From NCBI GenBank assembly GCA_947650365.1, contig OX393549.1, forward strand, positions 18,767,532-18,831,531: DNA of 64,000 nt, in the 5' to 3' direction. Shown one piece after another: positions 6,849-50,246 of this stretch. A program made the translations under genes and the position numbers. The stretch's first letter is position 1, and each line of letters starts with the position of its first letter. Source of the DNA: Chamaelirium japonicum (lineage: Eukaryota; Streptophyta; Magnoliopsida; Liliales; Melanthiaceae). The notes beneath the pieces were generated by a model, which did not search any database, was not told the DNA's origin, and saw only the letters and a program-made list of their open reading frames with translations.

Positions 6849-10288
<3,440 letters not shown>

Positions 10289-18604: not shown

Positions 18605-19205
18605 TCTGTAATAAAGATCACAAGCCAAAATGCAATAAGAAATTATTTTTATTTTTTTCCCCACAAATATTAATAATTGGAAATTTTTATTAGAAAAGGA
18701 AAATTGGAGAGAGAGCTCAGAAGGCATACCACTTGGAAATGAAATGGGAAGCATAGATTGATTTGAGTTCCCTTTTTGGAATTAGAAACATAGATCGGAT
18801 TTGGGACAGATCTCGTTGTCTGAATGGCTCAATGGATTCTTTTTTATTTTGCTTCTCTCTCTCGTCTATCTCTTTAAAGGGACACCTGGCCGGTTGGGGA
18901 TACGCTCTGGTGGCACCGCAGCTTGCAGATCTCGTGCCGCGTGGAATGAAGAAAGGTTGTGATGTGGGCTAGCTCTGGCTCTTGATGAAAGCCCGCAGCC
19001 GCAGGTACTTTTTTCATTTTTTTCTTCCAAGGATTCGGGTCTCGCACGGTGGGATAGCTTCTTGCCACGTGTGATGCACGGACGGCTCTAATGGGCATGA
19101 GGGCAAAGTTGCTAAAGAGATCGACTTCGATCAAAGTTGCATCCTAGGTCAAAAAATTTCTAGATTTTCAGTGGGGGCAACTGCCCCCACTGTAGCTCCG
19201 CCTCT
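18605..19205. other. Intergenic, nothing recognised
   Basis: AT-rich stretch followed by mixed-composition DNA; an inverted GTGGGGGCAACTGCCCCCAC lies at about 19171-19190. No coding frame is supported. Confidence 0.4.
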
Positions 19206-22740: not shown

Positions 22741-23011
22741 ATGAAGGTGAAGGGCTCTTATCTACCATGTGCTCTACTTCTCTTCTCTCTAGTTCACGCC
22801 GCCGCTGCCGTCATCGCCGCCTCTCCTTTCCAGCGAGCGACTCCTCTGGCTCCAGCCGTGATCACGTTCGGAGATTCCATCATGGATACTGGGAACAACA
22901 ACGCGATCCCGACCTTCGCCAGGGCGAACTTCCCGCCCTACGGGATGGACTTCGATGGCGGTGAGCCGACGGGGAGGTTCTGCAATGGACGGATCCCTCC
23001 AGACTTCATAG
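22741..23011 (+). CDS. GDSL gene B exon 1
   Basis: It encodes the signal peptide, [12 protein letters not shown] with the nucleophile Ser46, and [12 protein letters not shown]. The ATG follows the TATA box by 56 bp and is the only suitable start. Donor G|GTATCC, phase 1. Confidence 0.9.
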
Positions 23012-24037
23012 GTATCCATCTACAAAAGAGAGATTCACACCACATGCACGGCTGGCCACCTTTAATTTCTATCTGTCTTAGTGGCAATTTATACACGAGG
23101 GGTGCTATTTGTTTATATAACAGGACATAATGCTATAGGCCTTCCACGTGTCAACTTTATGCATTGAGAAATGCTATTCAGACCCAAGGTTTTCCCGATT
23201 CAGCTCAGCCTGGTTGATGTGGCAGTGTGCAACTAGTAGTGTAAAAAGATTTAAATGTCGCTAGTGGGTTTCAGCAGCCAGTTGTATGCTGCATGCCAAG
23301 TCGATCGGGCTGGCGGAATCTTAAAAATCGTCGGACTGAATAGCATTGCAACAATCCCCCGCCGCGAAAAAAAAAAATAATAATAAGAAGCAATTAAAAT
23401 AAGGGTTATTTTGACTTTGCCCCCCAAATTTTGCCTTGAATTAGAATTTACCCTCATTTTTCATTAATTAGACTTTACCCCTCAAAACTAAGTATTCCGT
23501 CAGCTCACCATCTAAGAGAAAGGGTAAGCTGATGGAAAAGAAATAAAGTTTTGGGGAGTGAGCTGAAGGAACAGTTAGTTTTGGGGGGTAAAGTCTAATT
23601 AATGAAAATATCGAGGGTAAAATCTAATTCAAGATAAAATTTGGGGAGCAAAGTCAAAATAACCTTTAAAATAAATGCAAACATTCCTTTAATGATCGTG
23701 AAGAGAGAGAGAGAGAGACTTAAAGAGTGACAACCTAATCTCAAATAGGAATTAGTAGTGAAGTTCAACACAACGGTTAGATAGGTCATTTAATGATAAT
23801 GGTATGCAATTGTAATATTAACAACTATGCTATAAAGTAATATTAACAACTTTCAATGTCCGGATCCTAGTGTCCTCTAAATCAACGAATAGGATCCGTC
23901 CCTAGAAAGCGACAAATTGGCTAATCTAATTAAGTTCCTCCGAATCGTTGGAAGGGAAAAGATTTACATGATCGACAAAACAATTATTAAAAAATGGTTT
24001 TAAAAAAAATGCGATTTTAGAGAGAGATAGAGATACA

Positions 24038-24104
<67 letters not shown>

Positions 24105-27100
24105 GTACCTGTGCACGCAACTTCTCTCTGGTGTCTCGATACAATGGGTGAATCGAGTGGGGAATAGGGCTGCTGACTGGCTAGCTAGGGAGGCTAGGAT
24201 GTACGGTAGAATCAGATTTCCCTCGTACTTTAACGCAACCTATTAAAAGCTAGTATTCGATATGGTCGAGAACCAGATCGATCGCAATGCGAAGGTGAAC
24301 ATCGACGAACTCCTAGCTAAAAACAATGGCGTGGAGACCATGTGAAAGATATCTCATAAACCTTCGTCTTCAGAAAACGGTGGCACGAAGGGCCAAGGAA
24401 TTGGGTGAACGCCATGAGAGTAAGCGCATACCCTATTCCCTTCAAGAAGATTCGCTCCTCAAACTAACAAACACCCAAAGGCCTCCAAAGAAGCTTCATC
24501 ACCAAAAAGGTGAACAAGTTGTGGGGGCCTCTTTAATAGATAGACCATCAATGCACATACTTTGATTATGATATTGCGATACAAAAGCGCTGAAATTTGT
24601 GCAAACTCATGATGCTTAGTTTTATAGACTGTTGGGTAAAAATATACAAGGTTTCATCCACACATCTAGAAATACAAAGAAACAACATACGAGGGAATTT
24701 TTACGTGGAAACCCAACCGAGAAAACCATGGTGCTTTCATATATTGATAAGGTAATCTACTATAAAACTTGGCATGCTTTACACTGAATTACAAAAATCC
24801 CCCAAGACAGACTCGATATTTGCACAGTTACTCGCTCTAGACTGTTGCTGCCCTTCCCGTATAGGCCGCCACCTATCATTCGGATCCTCCCCGCTGCAAC
24901 CTTGGTACCTGACGCACTGATAACGACGAAACTCACATATGTTGCTTTTATCAATGAAATCCTCACGACTGATGGCTCAAACAAATATCAATCGACCAAT
25001 CTCATCGGACACATTGTCGAGTAGGGACCTCGAGGCTTTGGAGGCTTCCTAACTTGCTTCAAAGGGATCTCACCAAATTTCAGTAATAACTGCCACTAAT
25101 CAAATCTTCCAATCGATAGTTTCGATTGAAACCATGAGGGAGAAAGGGATTTTTTAAACCAATAGGTAGGAGGGAATGGGGTCTATCTACTCTCTTAAGA
25201 ATCAAAGCCATAAAATCCATAATGAAAACAAATCAAATCACCTACCTAATGGAAAAGAAGGAAGACTTAGCCAATTTGGGGTTTTTCTCTCCAAGAACTC
25301 TTTGCTGCAAAAGAGGCTATACAAATCCATACCCTAATGAGCCAACATGGCGATTTATATAGGGTACAATTCCCCTATTGATTGTCATTGGATCTGGCCA
25401 CCAATGATTGAGATATCTCAACTTAAAAGAGAAAATCTGATTGTTGGTCTAGCAGTCGCAAATAAGGTTTAAAATTTTGGTTTCGTGTCGGGGTTCGATC
25501 CAAGTCTACCAATATTTTGATCGAAATTTAAAATTTATAGTTTCAGCTCCGAAATAGAAATTGATCAAAATTTATCATTCCAATTCTAAAAGCCAAAGCC
25601 CAAATTGATCAAAATTTTGATCAAAATTAACCAAAAATTACTAAAATTGATTGAAATTGACCACAATGGTCAATCCCCTACCTCATTTTGTTTTGGTCCG
25701 GCCGAAATCGAAATAATTCGCCAAAATTTCGTTATTTTAGTCAAAATTTGAGACCATCATAAAGCTGTCCAAACGAGTGTCCGAACCACTTGGACCCATC
25801 AGAACGAGTATCCGGCGGCCCGTGGTAATTCTGTTAGCTCATTCGGACCAATTGAACGGTTCAAATCTAAGAATGGCGGTCTGAATGACTATTCGAACGC
25901 GTAAGGGGAACCCGTCCGAACGAGTGTCTGGACTGCCCCTGCAGAATCTGAACACTTACAATAATTCTAAGTGTTTGGCCATGACGGAGTTGATTTTGAG
26001 AATCTGATAAAATCCAATATGGTCCGAAAAACCCATGAAGCATTAAATCAATATAAAAGTGGTGGTTCGAAGTAAATTTTTTTAAAAAGCATTCGAACTC
26101 CGAAAAATATGAAACAATCGAATTTGTGAAATCACACAAATCCGAACAGACTCGCAAAGACCCCGATTTTCTATATCTAATCCACATATCACTGAGCCAA
26201 ACACGTTGTATACCTTTTGGAGACGGCTGAATCATGTCTTTTGATCTCCATGAAGCATTGTACCGCAATTGAACATCTTCAGCGACTGAGGAGCACGATC
26301 ACAACCTAGCCTCATCGGATATTACACAACCTTACCGAAAGTGGCTTGTGTACACAAATTAAATGTGAAACGACGATGTATCGTAATGCAGTAACATGCG
26401 TGAATCAAAGAGGTGGACCAAAATATTAAGACTACGGGGGCTAGCCAGAGTGCCTGGTCCGAAGCTGAAGACTTAAGGTGTCATCCAAGGAGGTAGACCC
26501 GTAGCCACACTACCATGGGCGCTAGCTAGTGCAATGGTCCCGAAGCTAAAGACTTTGGGCGCATGCCAAAGGGTCGGTCCCTAAGCGACACAATTATGAA
26601 GCATAGACTTGTGCGAAGTATCATGAAACGATGCACCATAATCTATAATGCATGATGCACTACTAGGATCTAAAGACAAAATTATGGCATCAAAAGTATC
26701 TTTGTTAAAAATATATATCAGATCTTTACCTCCTTGATTATTGTCTTCTTCTGGCTTCTTTGGTGTTTTGCAATTCCGTGTCTAGTACCCTTTTGCAATT
26801 TACGTCTCCTCGACTTTGATTAACCACGATATTTGTATTCCGCTATACGACTTTCTTCCCCTTCAGTATTTGGAGCAGTCCTTGATGCTTATACTAAGGG
26901 TTTCTGTGGGCTTTCTCGCTTAGGACACCCATGATATCATCAAACTTTAGTTTGCCTGATCTAGAGGAGTTGCTCACCGTTATGACCAAACTGTCCCGAC
27001 TATCTGGGAAACCTGATAAGAGTAGAAGAGCAACTGATAAGAGCAGAAGAGCAACTATGTTGATAAGAGTAGGAGTTTCATCATCAAAAGTAATGCTTAC

Positions 27101-30100
27101 CAATTCTAACCGACTTGCTACTGTGTTGAGATTATTCAGATGTTCAGTCATACGCCATTCATTGCCCATCTTCATGTTAAACAACCTCTTCATCCGAAAA
27201 ACCTTGTTGGAATTATAAGGTTTTTCTTATATCTTTGATAGGGCAACCACTAGATCTATTGTCTTCTTCTCTTTTGAGATGTTGAAGGCTATATATGTGG
27301 CAAGGGTAAGTCGCACTGTACCTAGGGTTTTCTTGTTGAGAATCCCCCCCACGTCATCGACCAACGGCTTTAGCCTCTTTGATTCTCCTCCAAGACAAAG
27401 ATAGATATCCTTATGATAAAGGTAATCATCTATTTGCATCTTCTAGAATTCAAAGTTCATGCCATTGAACTTCTCGATCCTAATCTATTCTTCTTCTGTC
27501 ATCATTGTCTCTCAAGCATAGATCTCTGATATTAGTTGTAAAGGAAAAACGACAAGAAGAATATGCAATCACGCAACTAGAATAGACATAGATTTAGCGA
27601 GATTCGGCAATGGGCCTGCACCCTCCCTTCATGATCGATTCCACTATGCTCTGAGGTGAAAATAAAAGACGATACATAGATTACAGGCCCTAACGGCTAA
27701 CTATCAATATAGACCTACAGTGAGGGTTTACATAGAACTAGAAAAGTATCGAAAATCCCCCAATTTGACTGACACCAATCAGCTTTGTTCCCCATTGGGA
27801 GACTGTCTCATTACCCTCGGGAGGCCTTCGGCAGGTCGAGGGATTACAACCCAATCTTCTAACCAAAACCATCATACTCCATCCAACATAACAAGCACAA
27901 CCAACAACTTTTCTCTTTCATTTCCACCTCTTCTTCTATGTAGACTCTTCTCTTGATCGCTCGCATATCCTTCTAAACCGCCATCTCCTTCTACCTCCTT
28001 TATTGTCACCACCAAATCCACCATGGTTTTCCTTTCGGGGTTGTGGGAAAGAGGGTGTGGTTAAGGTAATTGTCACTTAACACTTGGGTCAACTATGAAT
28101 CAAACTTTGATGTAATACTTGAGGAATTTGTGCATATCCTTTTCAACAAAGAATTGTAGTTTGAACATGTGCTTTAAATAACCTATTAATTACATTTAAT
28201 TAATTTAGTATTATATATCTTTTACTTTCTCCCCTATTTCTACTCTATAATTTTTTTGAGATATGAAAGGCAAGACATATGCAATAAAAAAGAGTTTCTT
28301 TTAGTGTAACCCATAGTTTTATGGATTAATTAGGTGTAGGTCTAGTATAATGGTATATACTTACATTATGTTCAACAAAAAGTTCCGGTTTACATCTAGT
28401 CCGTATAATGGATTTAGTTTAAGAGGTGATCATGTACAATTGTTTTAACGCATAAGAGGTATTTTTTTGATTGCTTTTAACGATATTTTTAAAAAATTCC
28501 AAATCTGCCCTTGCAAACCTCTCCCACGTGAACGCAATTTAGTTCTAGTAGCCATGCTACCAAGTTGTGCGTTTTTTTGAAAAAAATAACATGTTAAAAA
28601 CATGAGTTATTGTTGTGGCGTTTAGTACACGACTTTTTCCTGATTTTTTGAAAAAGTTACGATTCTTTGAAAAATCATGAATTTTACGTTTTAATTCCGA
28701 TTTACACATTTTAATCCCGATTAATCACATTTTAATCCCGTCATATATTGCTCAAAAAAATTATTGAAAGTTTGGAACAACTTTATATAATTTTTAAAAA
28801 CTTCTACCGTCTTTTTCCTCGACTCTTTCTCGGCTTTCCTTACTTTTTTCCTATTTATCCGGCTTCTCCCATAGTCGATTTTTTCCAAACTTCCTACTTG
28901 ATAACTTTGTATTGTAGTTTGTTGCTACAGTGATTTCATTGTAGCAGCTACAACGATTCCACTGTAGCAGCTACAGTCTACAGTGATTTTGGTTTAGTTA
29001 TTAGGTTAAGTTTAGGGTTCACTAATAGAGGTATAAAATTAGGGTTAGGGTTCACTATTTATTTTATAGAATTAGGTTTACGGTTAGGGTTCACTATTTA
29101 GGGTATAAAATTAGGTTTAGGGTTAGGGTTCACAATTTAGGTTATAGAATTAGGTTTAGGGTTAGGTTCACTATTCAGGGGAAAAATTAGGTTTAGGGTT
29201 AGGGTTTCACAACACGACAAAAACACTTCAGAATTCTGAAATGTTTTTTGTCGTGTTGTGAAACCAGTTTAACTAGATGATTAATGGAAGGGCATATGAG
29301 TCATTTTACTAGCCGTTGGATCTATTGCAATTGAAACTTTTAGCCGTGGATCTTTCTTAATAGGAAAGTTTTGTCGGGACCTATAGTTACTGAAATGTTA
29401 TTATATGGACCTAATGCAAACTGCCCCTAGTTTTATTGATATCACTCTGCTAAGTAGTGGTTTAAACTCTATCCTGATTTATATTATAATAGGTTGCAGT
29501 AGAAGTCCCATAATTTTGTCAAATGAAAATCTCCATCCTTCAACTAACCTATATGGAATGGATAGGAAGGGAGTGTGAGCTGTTTAGCTAGATATTTGCT
29601 AATGAGTTTCTTATAAGATGTATTCTTATTATATTGATAGGAATTTTCACTAAACTCTTTAGTACCCTCTTGTCACCTGTGCATGTATTTAAAGATGGAA
29701 TTATTAATCTAAAGATTCAAATGATTATCAGTTCTTATAGGGCCTTTTTCCATAACAAAATTTTCAAAATATACCCTTAACTTTTTCTACACAATTTCAC
29801 ATTTCTTAAGACAATAATGTGTTATCCTTATTTCTGACCTATATTCTCAGTCTTGTTGTTGCAACCATAGTTATCAAGTAGGAAAACGGGAAAAAAACGG
29901 CAAGGAAAAAAATCAGAAAGATACGATGAAAACAGAAAAAACGGAAAAAAAACGTGAAAATATCGAAAAAACAAAAAAAATCTTTAAAATTATACCAAGT
30001 ATGTATAAATGTCATTTTCCAACATTAAGTAATCAAAAGTTCAAAACATATAGCATATGCGTTTATTAAGCACGAACAAAATAAAATCCGAACCCAATTT

Positions 30101-33100: not shown

Positions 33101-33804
33101 CTCACCAGCAAACTATGACTCGGAAGTGAACTAGCTTGGATCAAAGGTCGAGGTGCGTTAACCGATCCAATCATGCCGGTTTTTTAAAAACCCAATCCGT
33201 TTCAATCCATTGAGTGTGTCGAAACCAATTAAAATTGGTTGGTTTGGTTTGGTCGGTATGATCGATTTGGTTTGGATTCTGCACCCCCCTAGACCCAACC
33301 ATCACCATCCTAGAGTTGCCTGAGCGACGAACAAGAGGATATAAAAGAAGGAAAGGTACCTTGACGATGGCCAAAGCTCATCTTGCGACTCACCAGCAAA
33401 CTATGACTCGGAAGTGAACTAGCTTGGATCAAAGGTCGAGGTGTGGCCAACCTTTCCAAACACTCAACCTACCAGAAGGCACTACACAGAAAATTGATTA
33501 CTCAGCAGAGCCTGCAATCCAAGTGGGAGCTATGTGTGTGAAGTATAATCAGACGGCTCTTTTCTTCCATCCATGGTCCAAATGCCTCACTCAGCATATG
33601 CAGTGAAATCCCCACGCATCAAATTTTTTTCCATGAAAACACACCGCATGGAAAACAAGTGTCATGTAATGTCAGACTTTTCTCTTCTAGCTTTCATTAT
33701 AAAAGAGAGGCTAGGGGCACAAAGGAGAGGGTTGATCATTTGCACACTTTGATGTAAGAGCATATTATCATTCTAGAAAGAATAACAAAACTCACACTCC
33801 CCTG

Positions 33805-33853
<49 letters not shown>

Positions 33854-39800: not shown

Positions 39801-42800
39801 CGGTTCTGAACTGTATCTAGCCAATAGATTAACAGAAAAACATATATCTGGCCTAGTACATTGAGCTAAATACAATAAAGCACCAATAGCACTTAAATAC
39901 GGTTTTTCAGAACCAAGAATAGTTTCATGTTCCTCTTTAGGTCTAAATGGATCTTTATGAATATCAAGAGGTCTAACTACCATGGGAGTGCTTAGTGGGT
40001 GACATTTATCCATATTAAATTTCTTTAACAAATTTTCAGTATATAATGATTGATGTACTAAAATCCCACTAGAGTTACGCTCGATCTGCAGGCCGAGACA
40101 AAACTTAGTATCACCAAGTTCTTTCATTTCAAACTCCCTTTTTAGATAATCAGAAGTTTTCTTGAGCTCTTCAGGAGTCCCAATCAAGTTTATGTCATCC
40201 ACATAAACGGTAATTATAGTAAATCCATTTTCTAATTTCTTTATGAAAATGCATGGGCATATGGGATCATTCTTATAACCTTCCCTAGACAAGTATTCAC
40301 TAAGGCGATTGTACCACATCCTTCCGGATTGCTTCAGGCCGTACAATGCTCGTCTTAGTTTTATCGAGTGCGCACTCTTTGATGTTGCTTCAGGCAACTT
40401 GAATCCTTCTGGGACTTTTGATGTTGCTTCAGGCAACTTGAATCCTTCTGGGATTTTCATATAAATATCTGTGTCTAGGTTCCCGTATAGGTATGCCGTT
40501 ACGATATCCATTAGCCTCATCTCTAGTTTTTTAGAAACTGTGAGACTAATAAGATATCTAAATGTAACTATATCCATAATAGGGGAATAGGTCTCTTCAT
40601 AATCAATCCCGGGTTTCTGCAGGAATCCCTGGGCTACAAGCCTTGCCTTATATCTAGCGATTTCATTATTTTCATTTCTTTTTCTTACAAACACCCATTT
40701 GAAACCTACAGGGTTTACGTTATTTGGTGTTTGTACTATAGGTCCAAATACTCCACGTTTCTTGAGAGATTCAAGTTCAGCTTGAATAGCTTCTCTCCAT
40801 TTTGGCCAAGCAGTTCTATGTCGACATTCATAGATACTACGTGGTTCATTATCTTCATCATCGCCCTTTGTTATTTCAGTAGCTACTTTGTATGCAAATA
40901 TGTCATCGATGACTATTTCCTTTTGGTCCCAAATTTCACCCCTCATATGGAATATTGAGCTCTCATTATTTGGTACCGGTACCTTATCCATAATCACTGC
41001 AGGGATCTCTTCAGGAGTTTGAGGGAAATTTGGCCGTTGGGAAATATTTTCTTCTTGAAAAATATGGTCCATAATCTCTTCTGGAGCATTATGACCAGGT
41101 TCTTTTGGAACCTTAACTTCTTCTGGAGTTTTAGGGCATGATTTCTCATTCAACTTCCTCTTCCGGGGAACTGAATTTTTGGAACCTATAGGTCTGCCAC
41201 GTTTCTGACGTGCAGCAGTTTCATTAGAGGAGTTGGAATATTAATTCTTGCAGGTACATTCTTGACTGGAACAAACGACTTAGTTACATTAGTTGCATCA
41301 TTGAAGGCATCAGGTAATTGATTTGCGATATCTTGCAAATGCAAAATCCTTTTTACTTCTACCTCACATTGGGGAGATCTAGGATCTAGATGAGACATAG
41401 TGGAAGTATTCCACGATAATTCACGCCGTTCTTCAGGAACAGGTCGTTGCCTAGAAACTTCTTTATCTCCCCCTAACGGCGGGAAGACTGTCTCATCGAA
41501 ATGACAATCTGCAAATCTAGCAGTAAATAGATCACCTGTTAAGGGTTCTAAAAATCTTATGATTGAAGGTGAGTCAAAACCGATATAAATCCCCAATCTA
41601 CGTTGAGGACCCATCTTAGATCTATTTGGAGGGGAAATAGGGACATGCACAGCATATCCAAACTTTCTAAGATGAGATATATTGGGCTGAATACCTGACA
41701 CAAGTTGTGCAGGAGAAAAAATATGGTATGAAGTAGGTCTTAGTCTGACAAGATTAGCAGCATGCAAGATAGCATGCCCCCATGTAGAAATTGGAAGTCT
41801 GGATTGTAAGAGTAATGGTCTAGCTATTAATTGCAAGCGCTTGATAAAAGCTTCAGCAAGACCATTCTGGGTGTGGACATGGGGGACAGAATGTTCGACT
41901 TCTATTCCGATGGATGTGCAGAAGTCATTGAAGATTTTAGAAGAGAATTCAGCTGCATTATCCAATCGGATAGATTTGATAGGGTTATCAGAAAAACTAG
42001 CTCTAAGTTTGATAATCTGGGATAATAATCTAGCAAATGCTAAATTTCTAGTAGAGAGTAGGCTCACGTATGACCATCTAGTAGATGCATCTATTAGGAC
42101 CATAAAATATCTAAATGGACCACTAGGAGGGTGTATAGGACCACAGATATCACCTTGAACCCTCTGCAGGAAGGTAGGTGATTCTGTCTCTATTTTCTTA
42201 AAAGAAGGTCTAGTGATTAACTTCCCTTGGGAACAAGGGTCACAAAAATGGTCATTTGAAAAAGTCAAACTTCGATTGTTAAGAGGATGACCATAGGAAT
42301 TATGAATGATCTTTCTAAACATACCTGACCCTGGGTGACCTAATCTATCATGCCAAAGGACCAAATCTTCAGGATTTGGGAACTTCTGGTTCAAGTGAGT
42401 GGCATAGGACTCCATAACCCCAATGTGGGTAAAGTATAACCCTAAAGATAGGGTTGAGCATTTTTCTAGTATTGAAATATGCTCTCCGTTTTTAGATGTG
42501 ATGCAGAGGTATTCTAGATTGCCTTCATTTGTAGTTTCTAAATGATATCCATTTGCTCGGATGTCTTTGAAGCTCAGTAAATTTCTTCTGGAATTTTCTG
42601 AGTAGAGAGCATCCTTAATTAGCAAATGAGTACCATTAGGTAAAAGTATATGGGCTCTTCCGGACCCTGTAACTATGTCAGTAGGGCCAGCCACTGTAGT
42701 AACCATACGTGAATTATATTCAAGATTTGTAAAGAATTTTCTGTGTTTCAGTATGGTATGTGTTGTTGCACTATCTATCAGGCAAATCTCTTTGCAGTTG

Positions 42801-45800
42801 GTCATCGTTCCTAAATGATAAGTTATGAGTCAATAAATACCATAAGAGAAGTATCAATGATAAAACTTACTAACACAATTTCTAAGTAAAATCACCAAAA
42901 CGATAATATGAATTGATAATATCCAATAGAATATAAAAATTACTCAACAATGTTTGACAGAATAAGAACTACTGAGTAATGTCTGACTGGAAATAAAAAC
43001 TACTTAGCAATGTTTGACAGGAAATAAAGACTACTTAGCAATGTCTGACGGAATAAATAAAAGAAAAACTAAAGTCTTCAGAGATCCCAAGATTCAGGGA
43101 TTTAATGTGCCATCGTCTAACTCATCAAAGTAATCTGAACTTTCCAGGTACGATGTCTTCAGGGCATCGGTCTGCTTCTGGTAATCTTCAGGCCACTCAT
43201 TGTTATCTTCATTCATATTTGTCTCTGTAGGTACCCCTGTACTTTTGTACTTATTCTTCTCATGTTTACTAGCACGGCAGTTTCTGGACCAGTGTCCTTC
43301 CTTTCCACATTCAAAACATATGTCCCTCTTATCTTCAGGTTTAGAGGGATTATTTTTTTCTGGATTCTGAGGAGCGATCCACTTGTTTTTAAAGTGTGTG
43401 TCCTTCCTAGGACCATAATAATCATCTCTTCGAGGATGATTCTGACGTCCACCTCTTCCAGGGTGATTTCTACCTCTTCCAGGGTAGTTATTGGGCCCTC
43501 CTCTGCCGTGTCTTCCACCTCTCCTTCCTCTGCCTCTACCTCTGCCTCTACCTTGGTAGAAATCATTGGCGTTTGCTTCTGGCAATGCCAATGATTTAGT
43601 GGGTCTAGAATTGTGATTCTTTACCAGTAGGTTATTATGTTCTTCAGCGATCAGGAGAACCTCTATGAGTTCCGAGTACTTCTGGTACTTCATCCCCCTG
43701 TATTGCTGTTGTAAAATAATGTTATTTGGGTGGAAGGTAGAGAGTGTTTTATCGATCATCTGAGCATCATCTATTTTCTCCTCACAGAGCTTCAGCTTGC
43801 TGACGATGTTGAGTAACTTCGAGTTGAACTCAGCCACGGTCTTGAAGTCCTGGAACCTGAGGGTGATCCATTCGCTCTTTGCTGCTGGCAAAGTGATCAT
43901 CTTCTGGTGATCGTAGCGTTCCTTGAGTGCCTTCCAGAGATCTGCTGGATCTACTATGTTCATATATTCATTCTTTAGATCTTCGTGTATGTGGTGCCTA
44001 AGGAAGATGAGTGCTTTAGCTTTTTCATCCGGTTTCAAACCATTATTCTCTTCTAGAGCTTTCTCTAAGTTCTTCGCTTGTAGATGTAGCAAACTATCTA
44101 CTCGCCAATTCAGAAAATTGCTTCCATTGACATTTAATGCATGGAAGTCTAATTTTGTAATGTTCGACATCTGAAGATTTAATGAATATTAACATTAATT
44201 ACTATGATTACCATATTCAACATGTGAGTATGTAGAGACATAATATAGAAAACAATTTGACATATCAAATACAAAGCCTATTAATACTGGGTATTAATAG
44301 GGTCCCTTTAGAAACCACTTGCCAAGGTAGAGCGGGTTCTATGGAACCGTCATGCGCCTTGCCAAGCTTTTCTAAAAGGTTCTAATTACTTAAATACAAC
44401 TAATGCAGAGAATAACATATTATGCACAAGATAAATATACAGTATAGAGTCTGTTACAATTAAAGACAATTCTGTCCTTATTTGTAAAACCAATATTGCA
44501 AATTGGTCCCTTAGGGGCTAAACAGTTAAATACATAAACAGTGTGTATGAAATAATAAAATCTGATCGTACCGATGCGTCCAGAATATTTCAGATACCCA
44601 AGATCCATATATGGATCGAACAATTTGGCTATAGATCGGACTTACGAAGCAGAATTGAAATGAATGGTATATATCAAAACAGGCAATCATATATATGTGA
44701 GTGCATATAAGAATGGACGGGTCAGATCTGCATAATGCAGTCGGGTCGGGTTTATGCAGTCGGGTCTGATATAGATCACAGTCGGGTCGGGTTCAAGTAG
44801 GCAGTCGGGTTTAGAGATTAAAACCCAATAGATGAACACTGTTCATCTTCTCCCACCAAAAAAAAACAGGAAACCCTAAACCGTCGCCGACCCCGCCCGC
44901 TGCCGCAGCTTGCGCGACCGGCGCTGGTGCAGCCGGCTGCTCGCACAGCCCGCTGCCGCCGCTCGCGCCGGTGGAGCCCGCTGCCGCTGCCACCGGAGAG
45001 TGCAGCCAGCAGCCGTCGCTCGCGCCGGTGGAGCCCGCTGCCGCTGCCGCCGGTGAGTGCAGCCCGCAGCCGTCGGGGTTGCACGCTGGTGCAGCCGCCG
45101 GTCGTGCGTGTTGCTACCGCCGGCCGAGTGTCTAATGGGTCGGGGAGGACGAGAGCCGGAGTTCAGGCGTACCTTGTTCACGTGATCGAAGCCGGAGTCG
45201 GGGAGGACGAGAGCCGGAGTTCTCACGGGACTGGATCTCTCTCTCTTCTTCTCTTCCTCTCTCTCTCTCCGATCTCTTCTCTCTCGTGCCGGGCTCGGAG
45301 CGTTCGTTCTCTCTTCTTCTCTTTCTCTCGTTCTCTCGATGGGGTCGGCCGGGTCGTGCTCTCAGCTCGTGCTGATAACGTGTTGAGAAAACGTTATTGT
45401 ATTATTCATTTACCCCCCTATATATAGGCATAATTGGAGGTTGGGATAGAGATGGGGAAATCTCCTATCCCATGAATCTAGGGGTATTTATCCGGTGGGC
45501 ATCCATATCCGATGCAACCACCGTTTCATAACAGTAACCTTTCCGAATAGGGGGGGGGGGATTGGTATGAACCCCAAAAGAGACAAAAACACAGAGCTAG
45601 AGCTAGGGCTGGCAATTTCGGACCCGACACGGCAGACCCGACTCGACCCGACACGAAATTAGCGGGTCTGGGTCAGGGCTAAACGGGTTCGGGTCGTAAA
45701 CGGGTCGACACGATATACCTGTTTAATAAACGGGTAGGGTCCGGGTTTAGGGTTTGGACACGGTAGACCCGGGAAGACCCGTTTAGTATTCAACAGGTCG

Positions 45801-48048
45801 GGTCGGGTTGGGTCGGGTCGGATCTACCCGCAATCCGATACTATAATATATAATACCAACGGGTCTTTCAGGTCAGGTTGGGTCGAGTCGGATTGGGTCA
45901 ACTGAATAGACCAGGGTGGTAAAAGGGTCTTATCGGGTCTACCGGTTTATTAGAGGGTCGGGTACGGGTTTAGGATCTAGACACGATTAGTTAAACGGGT
46001 CAGGTCCGGGTTTAGGGGTTTTGGACAATACACGAACCCGACACGACACGACCCATTGCCACCCCTACACAGAGCTATCCTAGATTGCTAGTGAATCAAA
46101 GCAGGTTTACAATAGGACTACAACCCAACATGGTGTCGCTGGAGTCTGACACGTGACTCGATTCAACCCAGCCGTATCCAAACATGATTCGACCCAACTC
46201 AAGCCAATGTGTCATTACCAAACCCGACCCGACAAACCCCATGAATATACTACAAGAACCCCATAGTAAAAAGGACATAATTTTAGATTTTAGCATTTTT
46301 TTTAGTAGATTTGAAAAATATTTAAAAATTAAGTAGTACCCCATTTGATTTTTTGAGAAACCTGTCGGCATCACACCTGCGGGATGTTAAGACTTGGACC
46401 CCTGCCATTCTGTCGATGTAGGCATGATTCGATCCCGGGTCTCTGGTACAACCATAGTTACCAAATCGGGCGTTTTTTTGAAAAAATCGCGTATAAAACG
46501 CGTATCAATCCGAAGTCGTTGCAAACAGGAAAAAAACTTAATTTTTTGAAAAAAACGTCCGTACGTGTTTTATACGCATATAAAACGGAAAAAACGCATA
46601 TAAAACATGTCGGATTTGGTCCGAGTTTAAATTGGGTTCGTATTTTATTTTGTTCATGCTTAATAAACGCATATACAATATGTTTTGAACTTTTGACTAC
46701 TTAATGTTGGAAAATGACATATACATACTTGGTATAATTTTTAAGATTTTTTTTGTTTTTTTTCGATGTTTTCATGTTTTTTTTCTGCTTTTTTCGTTTT
46801 CATTGTATTTTTCCGATTTTTTTCCTTGCCGTTTTTTTTTTTCAGTTTTACGACTTGGTAACTATGGGTACAGCCAGAAAAAAACTACCGGCTGAGCTAG
46901 CTAGCACCTTCGGCCTTTTTTTTAATGCCTATTTTAAGTTCTCCTTACTTTAAACCACACTAATTTGCCAAATATGACTTATATGGCATTGCTTGCCATT
47001 GTTGTCTATGATCACAATTATATGTTTTAATAATGTTACTAGTCCAACTTCCAAAAAAATTTAAAATAATGTTACTAACCCGGAGTGCTCCAGAAGTCTA
47101 ACCTCTTGGAACATTCCGGGTTATATTAAGCGGCCTAATGATGCCCCCCTTTTTGATGTGGGACTAAACTTGTCTCAACACTCCCTCTCACGTGGAGCAT
47201 GCATGGCAGAGAAACCCATCAACATTACCTGAGGGGTGTTAAGGCTTGGACCCTTCCATTCTATCGATGAAGGCATGATTCGATCCCGGGTCTCTGGTAC
47301 AACCAGAAAGAGACTACCGGCTGAGCTAGCTAGCACCTTCGGCCTTTTTTTTTTAATGTCTATTTTAAGTTGTAGTTACTTTAAACCACACTAATTTGCC
47401 AAATATGACCTATATGGCATTGCTTGTCATTGCTGTTTATGATCACAATTATATGTTTTAATAATGTTACTAACCCAACTTCCAAAAAAATTAAAAATAA
47501 TGTTACTAACCCGGAGTGCTCCAAGAGGATAACCCGGAGTGCTCCAAAAGGCTATCCTCTTGGAGCACTCCGGGTTATATTAAGTGGCCTAATGATGCCC
47601 CCCCTTTCTGATGTGGGACTAAACTTGTTTCAACACTCCCCCTCACGTGGAGCATGCGTGGCAAAACACAATTGGGGGGGGGGGGGGGGGGGAGAGGGCT
47701 AGCCCAGATCTGATACCATGTTACTAACCTGGAGTGCTCCAAGAGGGTGAACCTCTTGAAGCACTCCGGGTTAGTAACATGGTATTAGAGCATAACATGT
47801 ATATTAAGCGGCCCCCTTTCTGATGTGGGATTAAATCTGTTCCAATGTTTGCAGGATTTGAGGAGTCATCCAAGGGATGCTGTGGTACTGGAGAATTTGA
47901 GCTTTCATTCTTATGTAACAGTAAGACCACACTTACATGCGCGGATGATACAAAGTATGTTTTCTGGGATAGCTTCCATCCCACAGAGAGAACATATGAG
48001 ATCATGGTTGATGAATTGTTGAAGAGATACCTGCAGGATTTGTTTTAA
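22741..48048 (+). CDS. GDSL gene B: secreted esterase/lipase, 5 exons over 25 kb, 361 aa
   Basis: This is a second plant GDSL (SGNH) serine hydrolase, the paralog of gene A. Coding exons are 22741-23011, 30606-30736, 30833-31066, 36869-37124 and 47855-48048; they join to 362 codons with no stop or frameshift, and every junction is GT-AG in the same phase as gene A. A signal peptide covers about residues 8-27. Block I is ITFGDS with Ser46. Block II is the SFASGGTG region (118-125). Block III is GSND (176-179) with Asn178. Block V is DSFH with Asp336 and His339. Length matches the usual 350-370 aa. Introns 1, 3 and 4 are 7.6, 5.8 and 10.7 kb and packed with transposons; intron 2 is 96 bp. Whether the full pre-mRNA is spliced cannot be seen from sequence. 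Confidence 0.88.
23166..23350. mobile_element. MITE of about 185 bp, GCTATTCAG family, copy 4
   Basis: The left end is GAGAAATGCTATTCAGACC and the right end GGACTGAATAGCATTGC. It lies 154 bp into intron 1 of gene B. Confidence 0.65.
23403..23665. mobile_element. Foldback MITE, GGGTTATTTTGAC family, copy 1
   Basis: A near-complete palindrome: GGGTTATTTTGACTTTGCCC opens it and GTCAAAATAACC closes it. The 9-bp TTAAAATAA is duplicated exactly at 23394-23402 and 23666-23674. The inner motif GTCAGCTCACC and its complement form the loop-proximal arms. A 9-bp duplication suggests Mutator-type mobilisation. Confidence 0.8.
24041..24103. repeat. (GA)n microsatellite
   Basis: About 31 GA units in intron 1 of gene B. 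Confidence 0.95.
24142..24246 (+). pseudogene. RNase H C-terminal relic
   Basis: A frame ending in a natural TAA encodes [19 protein letters not shown] and then [12 protein letters not shown]. This fits the end of plant retroelement-type RNase H domains (R-x-x-N-x-x-A-D-W-L-A-[RK]). The rest of the domain is missing upstream, where a (GA)n tract intervenes. Confidence 0.55.
24247..26889. other. Intron 1 repeat DNA, no intact gene
   Basis: At 24700-24730 ACGTGGAAACCCAACCGAGA resembles retroelement LTR or leader sequence. At 25460-25760 AT-rich ATTTTGATCAAAATT repeats are self-complementary. Nothing coding is supported. Confidence 0.35.
26894..27475 (-). pseudogene. Copia gag relic
   Basis: The minus strand encodes first [16 protein letters not shown] and [18 protein letters not shown], then after a frame break [20 protein letters not shown] and [14 protein letters not shown]. 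These match the UBN2-type gag of Copia elements in order. A stop sits just before MQIDDYL, and a small in-frame duplication (VALLLLS twice) disrupts the second part. A primer-site-like TAATATCAGAGATC on the minus strand near 27520-27533 supports a 5' end on the right. Confidence 0.7.
27540..29004. other. Intron 1 DNA, probably LTR debris
   Basis: The segment beginning TGTAAAGGAAAAACG near 27538 is placed where the 5' LTR of the Copia relic should be, but its far end is not identified. The remainder is AT-rich and contains fragments resembling the MITE at 29866. Confidence 0.35.
29005..29204. repeat. Telomere-like TTTAGGG-rich tandem repeat
   Basis: Four to five units of about 45-50 bp, each with TTAGGTTTAGGGTTAGGG or a variant followed by TTCACTATTTAGGG. 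TTTAGGG is the plant telomere heptamer, but here it is interspersed, not an uninterrupted array. Confidence 0.6.
29205..29263. repeat. Strong hairpin with about 29-bp arms
   Basis: TTTCACAACACGACAAAAAC pairs with GTTTTTTGTCGTGTTGTGAA, and the arms meet at CAGAATTCTG. One bulge and one mismatch are visible. It directly follows the telomere-like repeat. Confidence 0.75.
29866..30264. mobile_element. MITE with CATAGTTAYCAA ends, copy 1
   Basis: The left end is CATAGTTATCAAG and the right end TTGGTAACTATG. The 8-bp GTTGCAAC is duplicated exactly at 29858-29865 and 30265-30272. The interior is rich in A/T runs and CGCGTTTTATACGCG. A second copy lies at 46453. Confidence 0.75.
30606..30736 (+). 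CDS. GDSL gene B exon 2
   Basis: At 131 bp, its acceptor is TTTCCAG and its donor TTG|GTATGT. The split codon joins exon 1 as Ala91. It encodes [12 protein letters not shown] and [17 protein letters not shown]. Confidence 0.9.
30833..31066 (+). CDS. GDSL gene B exon 3
   Basis: At 234 bp, acceptor TATTTCAG, donor CAG|GTAAAT, phase 0 at both ends. It carries [13 protein letters not shown] and block [15 protein letters not shown]. Confidence 0.9.
31588..32139. mobile_element. hAT-like MITE with TAGGGGTGTGCA ends
   Basis: It starts TAGGGGTGTGCATTGG and ends TTGTGCACCCCCCTA. GACCCAAC is duplicated exactly (31580-31587 and 32140-32147). The interior is CCGATCCAAT and TTGGTTTGGT blocks. Its right end is included in the 288-bp tandem array. 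Confidence 0.75.
32004..33443. repeat. Tandem array, 5 x 288 bp
   Basis: Five units repeat at exactly 288 bp (about 1440 bp total) and differ at only a few positions. Each unit contains the last about 135 bp of the hAT-like MITE, its GACCCAAC target copy, and flanking DNA with GATATAAAAGGAGG. A 67-codon frame on the minus strand recurs in every unit; this follows from unit identity and is not taken as a gene. Confidence 0.93.
33444..34110 (+). mobile_element. Right part of a Gypsy-type LTR with primer-site-like junction
   Basis: TATAAAAGAGAGGC near 33700, (CT)n at 33808-33851, and a CTCGGATCTTCTTATGATTC segment precede a CCCCACA end at 34093. This is followed by TTAGCACCCACTGTGGGGC, resembling the TGGCGCCCACCGTGGGG junction of some plant Gypsy elements. 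The left end is not found; the MITE and tandem array at 31588-33443 interrupt the region. Confidence 0.45.
34146..34380. mobile_element. Degraded inverted-repeat element
   Basis: The ends are AGGGTTTTAAATC and GATTTTAAACCTTG, inverted to each other. The interior has repeated TACCGGCCAGTACCGG-type sequence. No clean target duplication is seen. Confidence 0.4.
34619..34737 (+). ncRNA. 5S rRNA-like domain in left Cassandra LTR
   Basis: TTAAGCGTGCTCGGGCGAGA and CTGGGAAGTCCTCGT are 5S rRNA hallmarks, with internal pol III boxes at 34667-34679 and about 34697-34709. The 5' third diverges. It is part of the retroelement and not a ribosomal gene. Confidence 0.8.
35016..35135 (+). ncRNA. 5S rRNA-like domain in right Cassandra LTR
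   Basis: The same boxes are preserved (A box from 35064; GGATGGGTGACC from about 35095). TTGGAAGTTCTCGT shows drift from the left copy. Confidence 0.78.
35176..36097. other. Intron 3 DNA, no gene
   Basis: The part at 35490-35690 repeats CGACCTCC/CCAGCGAC motifs. Other parts are A/T-rich. A frame at 35796-36041 has no recognised similarity. Confidence 0.4.
36098..36366. mobile_element. Foldback MITE, GGGTTATTTTGAC family, copy 2
   Basis: It opens GGGTTATTTTGACTTTTCC and ends GTCAAAATAACCC. It sits in A-rich flanks that hide the target duplication. It is 502 bp upstream of exon 4 of gene B. Confidence 0.75.
36869..37124 (+). CDS. GDSL gene B exon 4
   Basis: At 256 bp, its acceptor TTGTTCAG follows a T run and its donor is ATG|GTAATT. 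It encodes [17 protein letters not shown] and [14 protein letters not shown]. Two copies of one foldback MITE flank it, at 36098 and 37297. Confidence 0.9.
37297..37560. mobile_element. Foldback MITE, GGGTTATTTTGAC family, copy 3
   Basis: It opens GGGTTATTTTGACTTTACCC and ends GTCAAAATAACCC; ATTTTTTTT (9 bp) is on both sides. It starts 172 bp after exon 4 of gene B and abuts the next element at 37571. Confidence 0.8.
37571..38690. mobile_element. Long-TIR element (Mutator-like), 1.12 kb
   Basis: The left end GGGAAATTTTATTCATATCC is the complement of the right end; the match runs about 45 bp each side (through CTGTAATTAGCCCCC). T runs flank both sides. It is non-coding and contains the MITE at 37967-38407. 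Confidence 0.65.
37967..38407. mobile_element. hAT-like MITE, GGGGTGGCAAT family, copy 4 (left end lost)
   Basis: The interior (AAATTAGCGGGCCTGGG, then AAACGGGTCGGGTCCGGG) and right end ATTGCCACCCCTA match the family. The left terminal repeat is missing or diverged, so the start is approximate. Confidence 0.55.
38708..38860 (-). repeat. Copia 3' LTR
   Basis: 153 bp, with a TATATATA core. It differs from the other LTR at two sites (CCCTCC versus CCCCCC; GAGACGG versus GAGATGG). Confidence 0.93.
38861..38869 (-). promoter_or_regulatory. Copia polypurine tract
   Basis: The minus strand reads AAGGGGGAG directly before the 3' LTR, as needed for plus-strand DNA priming. Confidence 0.75.
39204..41153 (-). 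CDS. Copia pol, reverse transcriptase and RNase H part
   Basis: 649 residues from the first ATG after the frameshift. The reverse transcriptase has the start [14 protein letters not shown], the first catalytic Asp near 216 ([12 protein letters not shown]) and the YVDD box at 317-320. The RNase H domain follows with ADSGFLSDP and [13 protein letters not shown]. The N-terminal hundred residues are the low-complexity linker from integrase. A 13-residue stretch is directly duplicated at 235-247 and 248-260, just after the first active-site Asp. In the parent element this part was continuous with the frame at 41186-42805. Confidence 0.92.
   Translation of the reverse strand: MNEKSCPKTPEEVKVPKEPGHNAPEEIMDHIFQEENISQRPNFPQTPEEIPAVIMDKVPVPNNESSIFHMRGEIWDQKEIVIDDIFAYKVATEITKGDDEDNEPRSIYECRHRTAWPKWREAIQAELESLKKRGVFGPIVQTPNNVNPVGFKWVFVRKRNENNEIARYKARLVAQGFLQKPGIDYEETYSPIMDIVTFRYLISLTVSKKLEMRLMDIVTAYLYGNLDTDIYMKIPEGFKLPEATSKVPEGFKLPEATSKSAHSIKLRRALYGLKQSGRMWYNRLSEYLSREGYKNDPICPCIFIKKLENGFTIITVYVDDINLIGTPEELKKTSDYLKREFEMKELGDTKFCLGLQIERNSSGILVHQSLYTENLLKKFNMDKCHPLSTPMVVRPLDIHKDPFRPKEEHETILGSEKPYLSAIGALLYLAQCTRPDICFSVNLLARYSSEPTLRHWNGIKQIFRYLRGTTDMGLFYSCGTPHLIGYADSGFLSDPHKGRSQTGYVFLNNNAAISWRSTKQTLVATSSNHAEILALHEASRECVWLRSLVQHIRSSCQLASVTKEPTVIHEDNAACIAQIQAGFIKGDRTKHILPKFFYTHELQKKREIEVKQVRSSDNLADLFTKALPKSTFQKMVYGIGLRRLNHQTN
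40374..40451 (-). repeat. In-frame 39-bp tandem duplication in RT
   Basis: The DNA encoding [12 protein letters not shown] occurs twice in tandem without breaking the frame. It falls between conserved reverse transcriptase blocks and would lengthen a loop. Confidence 0.85.
41186..42805 (-). CDS. Copia pol, protease and integrase part
   Basis: 539 residues. The aspartic protease motif is LIDSATTHT (Asp11; Ala replaces the more usual Gly in DSG). The integrase HHCC zinc site is His152, His157, Cys188, Cys191. The catalytic triad is Asp219, Asp282 and Glu318, with 35 residues between the last two. The frame runs off into a short unrelated tail (about the last 12 residues) before TAG at 41186; the expected basic linker continues in another frame, indicating a 1-nt indel near 41216-41230. 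Confidence 0.9.
   Translation of the reverse strand: MTNCKEICLIDSATTHTILKHRKFFTNLEYNSRMVTTVAGPTDIVTGSGRAHILLPNGTHLLIKDALYSENSRRNLLSFKDIRANGYHLETTNEGNLEYLCITSKNGEHISILEKCSTLSLGLYFTHIGVMESYATHLNQKFPNPEDLVLWHDRLGHPGSGMFRKIIHNSYGHPLNNRSLTFSNDHFCDPCSQGKLITRPSFKKIETESPTFLQRVQGDICGPIHPPSGPFRYFMVLIDASTRWSYVSLLSTRNLAFARLLSQIIKLRASFSDNPIKSIRLDNAAEFSSKIFNDFCTSIGIEVEHSVPHVHTQNGLAEAFIKRLQLIARPLLLQSRLPISTWGHAILHAANLVRLRPTSYHIFSPAQLVSGIQPNISHLRKFGYAVHVPISPPNRSKMGPQRRLGIYIGFDSPSIIRFLEPLTGDLFTARFADCHFDETVFPPLGGDKEVSRQRPVPEERRELSWNTSTMSHLDPRSPQCEVEVKRILHLQDIANQLPDAFNDATNVTKSFVPVKNVPARINIPTPLMKLLHVRNVADL
42933..43058. repeat. Three 42-bp repeats in the gag-pol spacer
   Basis: AATGTTTGACAGGAAATAAA and ACTACTTAGC-type segments repeat at about 42 bp between the gag stop and the protease start. 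Confidence 0.7.
43094..44170 (-). CDS. Copia gag
   Basis: 358 residues. The N-terminal UBN2-type capsid region includes [14 protein letters not shown] and [13 protein letters not shown]. An RG-rich basic segment spans about 207-248. A CCHC zinc knuckle (Cys285, Cys288, His293, Cys298; [14 protein letters not shown]) binds nucleic acid. It ends in a stop well before pol, so gag and pol are separate frames with a 288-bp gap. Confidence 0.92.
   Translation of the reverse strand: MSNITKLDFHALNVNGSNFLNWRVDSLLHLQAKNLEKALEENNGLKPDEKAKALIFLRHHIHEDLKNEYMNIVDPADLWKALKERYDHQKMITLPAAKSEWITLRFQDFKTVAEFNSKLLNIVSKLKLCEEKIDDAQMIDKTLSTFHPNNIILQQQYRGMKYQKYSELIEVLLIAEEHNNLLVKNHNSRPTKSLALPEANANDFYQGRGRGRGRGRRGGRHGRGGPNNYPGRGRNHPGRGGRQNHPRRDDYYGPRKDTHFKNKWIAPQNPEKNNPSKPEDKRDICFECGKEGHWSRNCRASKHEKNKYKSTGVPTETNMNEDNNEWPEDYQKQTDALKTSYLESSDYFDELDDGTLNP
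44948..45075. repeat. GC-rich tandem repeat in the Copia leader
   Basis: Two units of about 61 bp with GCTCGCGCCGGTGGAGCCCG. It lies in the untranslated leader between 5' LTR and gag, and creates spurious Ala/Arg-rich frames. Confidence 0.7.
45381..45533 (-). repeat. Copia 5' LTR
   Basis: 153 bp. Immediately inside on the minus strand is CGTTATCAGCACGAGC, the position of the primer site; the tRNA is not assigned. Confidence 0.93.
45598..46067. mobile_element. hAT-like MITE, GGGGTGGCAAT family, copy 5
   Basis: CACAGAGC is duplicated exactly (45590-45597 and 46068-46075). The left end carries a 6-nt repeat (TAGAGC TAGGGC) before TGGCAATTTCGG. The right end is ATTGCCACCCCTA. Confidence 0.7.
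46380..46915 (-). mobile_element. tRNA-derived SINE, split by a MITE
   Basis: On the minus strand the head holds TAGCTCAGCCGG (46888-46899, pol III box A) and GGATCGAATC (46426-46435, box B). In the uninterrupted copy at 47229 these are about 30 bp apart. Here a MITE at 46453-46866 separates them. Confidence 0.6.
46453..46866. mobile_element. MITE with CATAGTTAYCAA ends, copy 2
   Basis: It begins CATAGTTACCAAATCGGGCG and ends CGACTTGGTAACTATG. GGTACAAC and GGTACAGC (8 bp, one mismatch) flank it. It is inserted into the SINE between its pol III boxes. Confidence 0.75.
47070..47180 (-). mobile_element. Solo-like TRIM LTR
   Basis: 111 bp; reads TGTTACTAACCCGG on the plus strand and ends TCTCAACA. 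The minus strand has TAGTCCCACATC, shared with the 1322 element. A CTCCCTCTCACGTGG (purine tract on the minus strand) follows. Confidence 0.6.
47229..47345 (-). mobile_element. tRNA-derived SINE, uninterrupted copy
   Basis: Minus-strand box A is TAGCTCAGCCGG (47317-47328) and box B GGATCGAATC (47277-47286). Spacing and order fit a tRNA-derived SINE head. No tRNA cloverleaf can be drawn confidently, so it is not called a tRNA gene. The SINE plus the following TRIM LTR is a duplicate of 46380-47228. Confidence 0.6.
47501..47845 (-). mobile_element. TRIM abutting the gene B exon 5 acceptor
   Basis: The plus strand has TGTTACTAACCCGG at 47501 and TGTTACTAACCTGG at 47719. The interior between the LTRs ends GATCTGATACCA (to 47718), the complement of the TGGTATCAGATC primer site, and begins CTCCCCCTCACG (complement of a purine tract). 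So the left LTR is about 47501-47635, and the right LTR runs from 47719 to about 47845. A G run lies at 47667-47691. No target duplication is evident. Confidence 0.65.
47855..48048 (+). CDS. GDSL gene B exon 5 and stop
   Basis: At 194 bp, it follows the acceptor TGTTTGCAG. The split codon completes Gly298 of the DYGFE motif. It encodes [10 protein letters not shown] and the catalytic [13 protein letters not shown] block, ending in TAA. A small LTR element ends about 9 bp before the acceptor AG. Confidence 0.9.
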
Positions 48049-49425: not shown

Positions 49426-50246
49426 AGGCCGGCCCTGAGGTTTTAGGGGCCCTAAGCAAACTGCAAAAATTGGGGCCCCATACATATTAATAAAATACAA
49501 AATTTACTATCAACATATGATTTTATCATTATCAACATGGTGATGATTGATGAGATCGGCTTTACCCATCAGAGGACCAAGAACGTCGGCGAGGGAATAA
49601 GAGATAGAATCATAGATCGGATTCGGAGGACATAGGCTCCCAGCTTCTGACCGGTAAGTCAGCAACCCTCTCGAGGGAATGAGGGATCGATCGAAGGCCG
49701 GACAGAGGCTCATAGCTTTTGGCCGGTAACCCTCTCAAGTCTCGTCGCTTTAGCCTCTCGAGCCTCTTCTTTCTCTCCCGTAGTTCGCAGCGTCCGCCGC
49801 ACAGCTGCACAATATTTTTTTGGGTTATTTTGACTTTGCCCCCCAAATTTTGCCTTGAATTAGACTTTAGCCCCCATCATTTCATTAATTAGACTTTACC
49901 CCCCAAAACTAACTGTTCCGTCAGCTCACCATCTAAGAGAAAGGGTGAGCTGACGGAATAGAATAATAAAGTTTTGGGTGGTGAGCGGATGGAACAGTTA
50001 GTTTTGGGGGGTAAAGTCTAATTAATGAAAATATGGGGGGTAAAGTCTAATTCAAGGCAAAATTTGGGGGGCAAAGTCAAAATAACCCTATTTTTTTTGG
50101 GATGAAGGCGAGCACAGCCGCACAGGTTAGCCGGTTAGGGCTTCTTGGTGAGTTGGTGTATGGAATTGACTATTAGGCCCCCCCTTAGCATTATACTTGG
50201 TTGTGGGCCGGTTTCCTTACCCGCCTACCCTCAGGGCCGGGCCTGG
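49426..50246. mobile_element. hAT-like element with GGCCGGCCCTGAGG ends
   Basis: The left end AGGCCGGCCCTGAGG and reverse-complemented right end CAGGCCCGGCCCTGAGG are inverted repeats. GTCCAGCC and GTCCAGCG flank it. A foldback MITE is nested at 49822-50088. Confidence 0.5.
49822..50088. mobile_element. Foldback MITE, GGGTTATTTTGAC family, copy 4
   Basis: It begins GGGTTATTTTGACTTTGCCC and ends GTCAAAATAACCC. TATTTTTTT (9 bp) is duplicated on both sides (49813-49821 and 50089-50097). Confidence 0.8.

What the first reader, a model, noticed from the sequence alone, without database searches (positions are those of the whole stretch)
22741..48048. An intact GDSL gene stretched to 25 kb by nested transposons
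Five exons totalling 1086 bp join in frame with all catalytic residues and canonical splice sites, although about 24 kb of insertions lies in three introns. Its paralog gene A spans only 3.4 kb. Keeping a clean frame suggests selection and tolerance of very long repeat-filled introns, which in plants usually needs special handling of intronic heterochromatin (inference).
Basis: partly seen in the sequence, partly recalled or inferred. Interest (0 to 1): 0.72.

Follow-up and report, generated by a model that had tools for sequence, protein, structure and literature searches.

The report
Plant GDSL gene with transposon-filled introns
A plant enzyme gene whose coding parts are intact is spread over 25 thousand bases because mobile and repeated DNA has piled up in three of its introns, a situation already known from rice; the one less usual detail is that a repeat relic reaches to within nine bases of the last exon.

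Summary
Five exons (271+131+234+256+194 = 1086 bp) at 22741-48048 (+) join into a 361-residue GDSL protein with no internal stop, GT-AG at four of four introns, and blocks FGDS, SFASGG, GSND, DSFH. Introns are 7594, 96, 5802 and 10730 bp. Exon structure matches the compact paralog A (span 3440 bp, 190 of 355 residues identical). Two details need correction: I could assign 13.5 of 24.2 kb of intron to repeats, and nesting is shown clearly for one insertion only. Contents include a young copia (LTRs 151/153 identical, TSD GTAAC), a Cassandra-like TRIM with 5S rRNA-like LTRs, palindromic elements, a 288-bp tandem array, and repeat sequence ending 9 nt before exon 5, so intron 4's branch point would have to be repeat-derived if exon 5 is spliced. 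Neutral simulation and A-B dN/dS point to constraint but do not prove B is alive. No transcript or ortholog could be tested. Not new in kind: rice GDSL genes reach 24,799 bp with repeat-holding introns of 12-13 kb (PMC3412167, passages), and about 11% of rice gene models have heterochromatic introns (PMC7145194).

The parts
22741..23011 (+). gene B exon 1 (271 bp): start, GDS block I
23012..30605 (+). intron 1 (7594 bp)
23396..23679 (.). palindromic MITE-like copy in intron 1 (91% to copies at 37297 and 49822)
26894..27226 (-). degraded copia gag remnant in intron 1; PF14223 at 25.3 bits, below Pfam's cut-off of 27
29012..29212 (.). telomere-like (TTTAGGG-type) minisatellite in intron 1
29865..30268 (-). 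element Q with inverted ends in intron 1, 86% to the inverted copy 46449-46867
30606..30736 (+). gene B exon 2 (131 bp): block II SFASGG
30833..31066 (+). gene B exon 3 (234 bp): block III GSND
31067..36868 (+). intron 3 (5802 bp)
32004..33443 (.). five tandem copies of a 288-bp unit, 98% matches
34446..35175 (+). Cassandra-like TRIM: LTRs 34446-34778 and 34859-35175, 80-bp internal part with PBS-like TGGTATCAGAG 3 nt after the first LTR, flanks CTTGT/CTTAT; 5S rRNA-like stretch in each LTR
36088..36375 (.). palindromic MITE-like copy in intron 3
36869..37124 (+). gene B exon 4 (256 bp)
37125..47854 (+). intron 4 (10730 bp)
37290..37574 (.). palindromic MITE-like copy in intron 4 (94% to 49815-50102)
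38708..45533 (-). copia retrotransposon: 153-bp LTRs 38708-38860 and 45381-45533 (151/153 identical), TSD GTAAC; gag, integrase and RT reading frames
46355..47845 (.). tandemly duplicated repeat unit (SINE-like and LTR-like pieces, labels by eye) with element Q inserted in the first copy; partial third LTR-like copy 47719-47845 ends 9 nt before exon 5
47855..48048 (+). gene B exon 5 (194 bp): block V DSFH, stop
6849..10288 (-). paralog gene A, five exons, 359 aa, span 3440 bp

Best explanation
Gene B is a plant GDSL esterase/lipase of the common five-exon structure, a nearby paralog of gene A (opposite strand), that still makes a full-length mRNA although three of its introns have filled with retrotransposons, MITE-like elements and tandem repeats. 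Insertions in introns are removed by splicing and so were tolerated; exons stayed under purifying selection. Shown: intact frame, conserved splice positions, elements and several of their boundaries. Inferred: that it is transcribed and spliced, and that the plant's intronic-heterochromatin machinery (IBM2/EDM2 type) lets the polymerase read through. In intron 4 the branch point and most of the pyrimidine tract would have to come from LTR-like repeat sequence, because repeat homology reaches to 9 nt before exon 5 (usual branch-point distance recalled).
For: Open 1086-bp frame, four of four GT-AG introns, conserved exon lengths; PF00657 score of B (117.2) not below that of A (114.5); all four SGNH blocks present in B; codon-position differences A-B 131/88/208 of 355 codons and dN well under dS; neutral simulation leaves an intact gene in 0.015-0.5% of 20,000 runs on the Cassandra-like LTR clock and 0.2-3.7% on the R1/R2 clock; in intron 4 the repeat-derived stretch holds candidate branch points CTGAT at -32 and TTAAA at -21. 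Published precedent for giant repeat-holding introns in rice GDSL genes (PMC3412167, passages).
Against: No transcript, methylation or ortholog data. The simulation without frameshifts is weak (5-12% intact on the older clock, 20-39% on the younger) and the frameshift rate rests on three gaps per pair. dS is saturated and A-B dN/dS cannot be assigned to B. The donor of intron 1 matches 5 of 9 consensus positions, and the last 60 nt of intron 4 have the lowest A+T (0.58) of the eight introns of A and B. The branch-point scan does not discriminate: the loose motif was found near 7 of 8 acceptors, the strict one near 3 of 8.
Confidence: 0.68

Rival explanations
1. B is a recently dead or dying gene: the frame is still open only because too little time has passed since the insertions stopped full-length transcription (for example since the young copia or the repeat at the exon 5 acceptor).
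For: Copia LTRs differ at 2 of 153 sites, so that insertion is young; repeat sequence reaches to within 9 nt of the exon 5 acceptor; without counting frameshifts, simulated neutral copies have no stop in 19-54% of runs, and no stop with start codon and splice dinucleotides kept in 5-39%, over both clocks and both rate models.
Against: The Cassandra-like element (K 0.13) and the R1/R2 duplication (K 0.075) are more diverged than the copia LTRs (K 0.013), and the frame has no frameshift, stop or lost splice dinucleotide; block residues all kept.
Confidence: 0.22
2. B is transcribed but mostly ends early or skips: the product is a truncated isoform polyadenylated in a heterochromatic intron, with full-length mRNA made only in some tissues or conditions.
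For: Premature polyadenylation inside heterochromatic introns is documented in Arabidopsis and rice when the machinery is impaired (PMC7145194 section 10).
Against: Exons 4 and 5, which such an isoform would not use, are not less like A than exon 1 is: 48 of 89 and 39 of 67 positions identical against 43 of 97 in the matches.
Confidence: 0.08
3. Assembly artefact: exons of different copies were joined across misassembled repeats.
For: Repeats of near-identical sequence (288-bp array, copia) are the usual places for misjoins.
Against: Exons are in order, on one strand, in phase and of nearly the same lengths as in A; the copia carries a perfect 5-bp target duplication, which a misjoin inside it would not give.
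Confidence: 0.02

Closest known systems
Rice OsGELP21 and OsGELP97 (GDSL genes with 12,861- and 11,743-bp introns; family spans 1009 to 24,799 bp), PMC3412167 (passages)
   Same: Same gene family, five-exon plan common (49.1% of OsGELP), giant introns holding MITEs, transposons and retrotransposons, similar greatest span
   Different: Here three introns are expanded and the species is unknown; repeat sequence abuts the last acceptor; no transcript evidence here
Genes with heterochromatic introns regulated by IBM2 (rice, PMC7145194; Arabidopsis IBM1, and RPP7, PPD7, PMC10241880 passages)
   Same: Coding exons separated by long TE-bearing introns
   Different: Heterochromatin and dependence on IBM2 not testable here
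Cassandra TRIM (5S rRNA-like LTRs; PMC4717578 passages; PMC10886601 passages)
   Same: Two LTRs of 333 and 317 bp each with a 5S_rRNA covariance-model match, 80-bp internal part with a tRNA-Met-type PBS (primer type recalled)
   Different: Not compared with a published Cassandra sequence; LTRs have diverged (K 0.13)

Membership tests
Plant GDSL esterase/lipase (SGNH hydrolase) | PF00657 domain above gathering score | tested here: met
   117.2 bits against 23.6
Plant GDSL esterase/lipase (SGNH hydrolase) | Ser, Gly, Asn, His (with Asp three before His) in blocks I, II, III, V | tested here: met
   FGDS, SFASGG, GSND, DSFH in B's translation; definition from PMC3412167 passages
Plant GDSL esterase/lipase (SGNH hydrolase) | Esterase or lipase activity | not testable with these tools
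   needs expressed protein
Gene with heterochromatic introns under IBM2-type control | Long introns containing TEs | tested here: met
   introns 7594, 5802, 10730 bp; 13,456 bp in delimited repeats
Gene with heterochromatic introns under IBM2-type control | CHG methylation and H3K9me2 over the intron, 3' transcripts lost in ibm2 | not testable with these tools
   no epigenome or mutant data
Cassandra TRIM (34446-35175) | LTR pair carrying 5S rRNA-like sequence, short internal part with PBS | tested here: met
   RF00001 49.2 and 43.7 bits (gathering 38) in the two LTRs, PBS-like TGGTATCAGAG 3 nt after LTR1
Cassandra TRIM (34446-35175) | Sequence similarity to a described Cassandra | not tested
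   no repeat library on hand
Copia LTR retrotransposon (38708-45533) | LTRs, TSD, gag, integrase before RT | tested here: met
   PF14223, PF00665, PF07727 in that order on the minus strand; LTR pair and TSD GTAAC

The most novel reading that the evidence does not exclude
The gene survived an LTR-type insertion that replaced the branch point and pyrimidine tract of intron 4, leaving only about nine original intron bases, and now splices its last exon through a branch point supplied by the repeat: a natural case of a transposon-built 3' splice-site region in an otherwise old intron.
Probability: 0.4. Interest if true: 0.42.

Novelty: new member of a known kind. Interest (0 to 1): 0.27.

Why it matters
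It is a clean example of how far plant introns can be stretched by mobile DNA without harm to the coding frame, with a compact paralog in the same window as control and insertions in the introns that can be ranked by age. The junction at exon 5 offers a testable case of a splice acceptor region taken over by a repeat. It does not open a new question, since rice GDSL genes of like size and make-up are in print.

Tried and rejected
Orthologs for a B-branch dN/dS: the search for related loci with B alone in viral contigs (5 pattern stretches, none confirmed), with the A-B alignment in genome contigs (52 stretches, none confirmed) and viral contigs (140 stretches, none confirmed). These collections are of viruses, bacteria and archaea, so this says nothing about plants. 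The PDB search gave 19 distinct sequences, named thermolabile hemolysin, SGNH/GDSL hydrolase, ChoE, cellulose-binding GDSL lipase and lysophospholipase A; best E 2.7e-08, too distant as outgroup (that they are bacterial is recalled, the listing names no organism).

The two direct repeats 37967-38407 and 45645-46067 that flank the copia were first taken for LTRs of an outer element; their ends read as a terminal-inverted-repeat element (45609-46067, by eye) and a third copy at 18206-18611 is about as similar to each (77% and 82%) as they are to each other (80%), so they are treated as separate copies. The 5S rRNA matches were considered as real 5S genes and rejected because they sit inside an LTR pair with a PBS. 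Ajax, the other TRIM with 5S-like LTRs, is known from nemerteans only (PMC10886601, passages). The R1-R2-R3 repeats were considered as a tandemly arrayed TRIM; rejected as a firm label because the two internal parts differ (about 320 and 83 bp; by count). L2 against L3 agreed at only 90 of 122 aligned positions (my L2 there was shifted by one base), and I saw no target duplication around them. YN00 failed. My first exon 2 boundary of gene A was off by 8 bases and was corrected. Ten ORFs were scanned for Pfam domains, six of them in the introns: none of the six matched; one outside gave a sub-threshold match (NolX, 16.4 against 26.1). Of six ORFs, two outside the gene (2948-3478, 15595-16038) had no match.

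Literature on LTR-supplied branch points: two searches, one with 2 papers whose titles are unrelated, one with none; this is not evidence of absence.

Full report
Gene model. Starting from paralog A (minus strand, exons 10288-10021, 7978-7848, 7758-7528, 7460-7205, 7042-6849; 1080 bp, 359 aa), tblastn against the window found gene B in four separate significant matches covering five exons. The exact joins give 22741-23011, 30606-30736, 30833-31066, 36869-37124 and 47855-48048, 1086 bp, no internal stop, GT-AG at 4 of 4 introns, introns 7594, 96, 5802 and 10730 bp, 24,222 bp in all. A and B share 190 of 355 aligned residues; their exon lengths are 268/131/231/256/194 and 271/131/234/256/194. 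Both match PF00657 (114.5 and 117.2 bits, cut-off 23.6). B keeps FGDS, SFASGG, GSND and DSFH; A has GTDD at block III.

Selection. Between A and B, NG86 gives dN 0.375, dS 3.22; LWL85 0.376 and 2.54; ML 0.375 and 1.90; YN00 failed. dS is saturated and the ratio (about 0.12-0.2) belongs to both lineages. To ask about B alone I used repeats in its introns as clocks: the Cassandra-like LTR pair (316 sites, 26 transitions, 12 transversions, 3 gaps, K 0.133) and the tandem copies R1/R2 (339 sites, 18, 6, 3 gaps, K 0.075). The second clock assumes that the duplication happened in this intron. In 20,000 simulated neutral histories each, no stop arises in 19% and 41% of runs; no stop with start codon and splice dinucleotides kept in 5.4% and 19.9%; and with no frameshift either in 0.015% (3 runs) and 0.24%. 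With a cautious transversion-based clock these figures are 26% and 54%, 12.5% and 38.6%, and 0.5% and 3.7%. The frameshift rate comes from three gaps per pair, so the strong figures lean on little data. Constraint on B is likely, not proved.

Intron contents. Intron 4 holds a copia element on the minus strand: gag (PF14223, zinc knuckle PF00098), gag-pre-integrase and integrase (PF13976, PF00665), RT (PF07727), LTRs 38708-38860 and 45381-45533 with 151 of 153 sites identical and the same 5 bases GTAAC on both sides. Intron 3 holds five 288-bp tandem units at 98% and a TRIM-like element 34446-35175 whose two LTRs each match Rfam 5S_rRNA (49.2 and 43.7 bits, gathering 38), with a PBS-like TGGTATCAGAG three bases after the first LTR and flanks CTTGT/CTTAT, 4 of 5 alike. 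PMC4717578 (passages) found 5S rRNA in no TRIM family but Cassandra; a later paper adds Ajax, in nemerteans only (PMC10886601, passages). Introns 1, 3 and 4 each hold a copy of a palindromic element of about 285 bp, and a fourth copy lies downstream of the gene. Element Q is in intron 1 and, inverted, in intron 4 (86%); in intron 4 it sits inside a repeat unit whose second copy lacks it, flanked by GGTACAACC and GGTACAGCC against a single GGTACAACC in the empty copy (my reading). Intron 1 also has a degraded gag remnant (25.3 bits, below the 27-bit cut-off) and a telomere-like minisatellite. The delimited stretches add up to 13,456 bp, 55.6% of the intron total; the sum uses a gag remnant extended to 27500 by eye. 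The other 44% is unassigned, not shown to be inserted.

The exon 5 acceptor. Downstream of R1 and R2 a partial third copy of their LTR-like part begins at 47719. Its 3' end, 34 bases ending at 47845, matches R2 at 30 of 34 positions (E 1e-9); exon 5 begins at 47855. Nine bases lie between. If exon 5 is spliced, the branch point and most of the pyrimidine tract are of repeat origin. Loose branch-point motifs there are at -48, -32 (CTGAT, which also fits the strict motif) and -21. This scan does not discriminate: 7 of the 8 introns of A and B have a loose motif in range and 3 of 8 a strict one. Pyrimidines make up 12 of 20 positions before the acceptor, within the range of the other seven (8 to 16); A+T of the last 60 bases is 0.58, the lowest of the eight (0.62 to 0.77 in the others). 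Whether the repeat was inserted there or the border was made by deletion is not known; I saw no target duplication.

Comparison. In rice, GDSL genes span 1009 to 24,799 bp because of large introns; OsGELP21 and OsGELP97 have introns of 12,861 and 11,743 bp with 13 and 12 repetitive elements, and 49.1% of the family has five exons (PMC3412167, passages seen). In rice 5,809 introns in 4,227 gene models, about 11%, carry heterochromatic domains and many such loci are transcribed; OsIBM2 loss reduces transcripts downstream of such introns through premature polyadenylation (PMC7145194, abstract and sections 6 and 10). Two orchid genomes are reported to have longer average introns than most other sequenced plants (PMC4709516, one passage). 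A 25-kb GDSL gene with repeat-filled introns is therefore a new member of a known kind.

Limits. The species is not known; that it is a plant follows from the gene family and the Cassandra-like element. The window's own genome could not be searched. No transcript, methylation or ortholog evidence was available. Element names for MITE-like, SINE-like and LTR-like pieces rest on their ends and repeats in this window and on recalled features, not on a repeat library.

Noticed in passing
window 6849-10288 (gene A): The compact paralog A has GTDD where SGNH hydrolases have GxND in block III, so its oxyanion-hole Asn is Asp; B keeps Asn. Whether this is common in its subfamily was not settled (one search, 2 papers listed, neither opened on this point).
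   Followed up: partly
window 52894-57273 and 59631-64000: A direct duplication with a 6.7-kb start-to-start spacing, alignment of 4385 columns at 96.6% identity, reaching the window end.
   Followed up: no
window 34446-35175: Cassandra-like TRIM in sense orientation in intron 3, so two 5S-like stretches would lie inside the gene's pre-mRNA.
   Followed up: yes
window 3481-5175: Large inverted repeats with long (TA)n and (GA)n runs.
   Followed up: no
window 14703-15418: Direct repeat with 425-bp spacing and open frames on the plus strand; no Pfam match for the one overlapping frame tried.
   Followed up: partly
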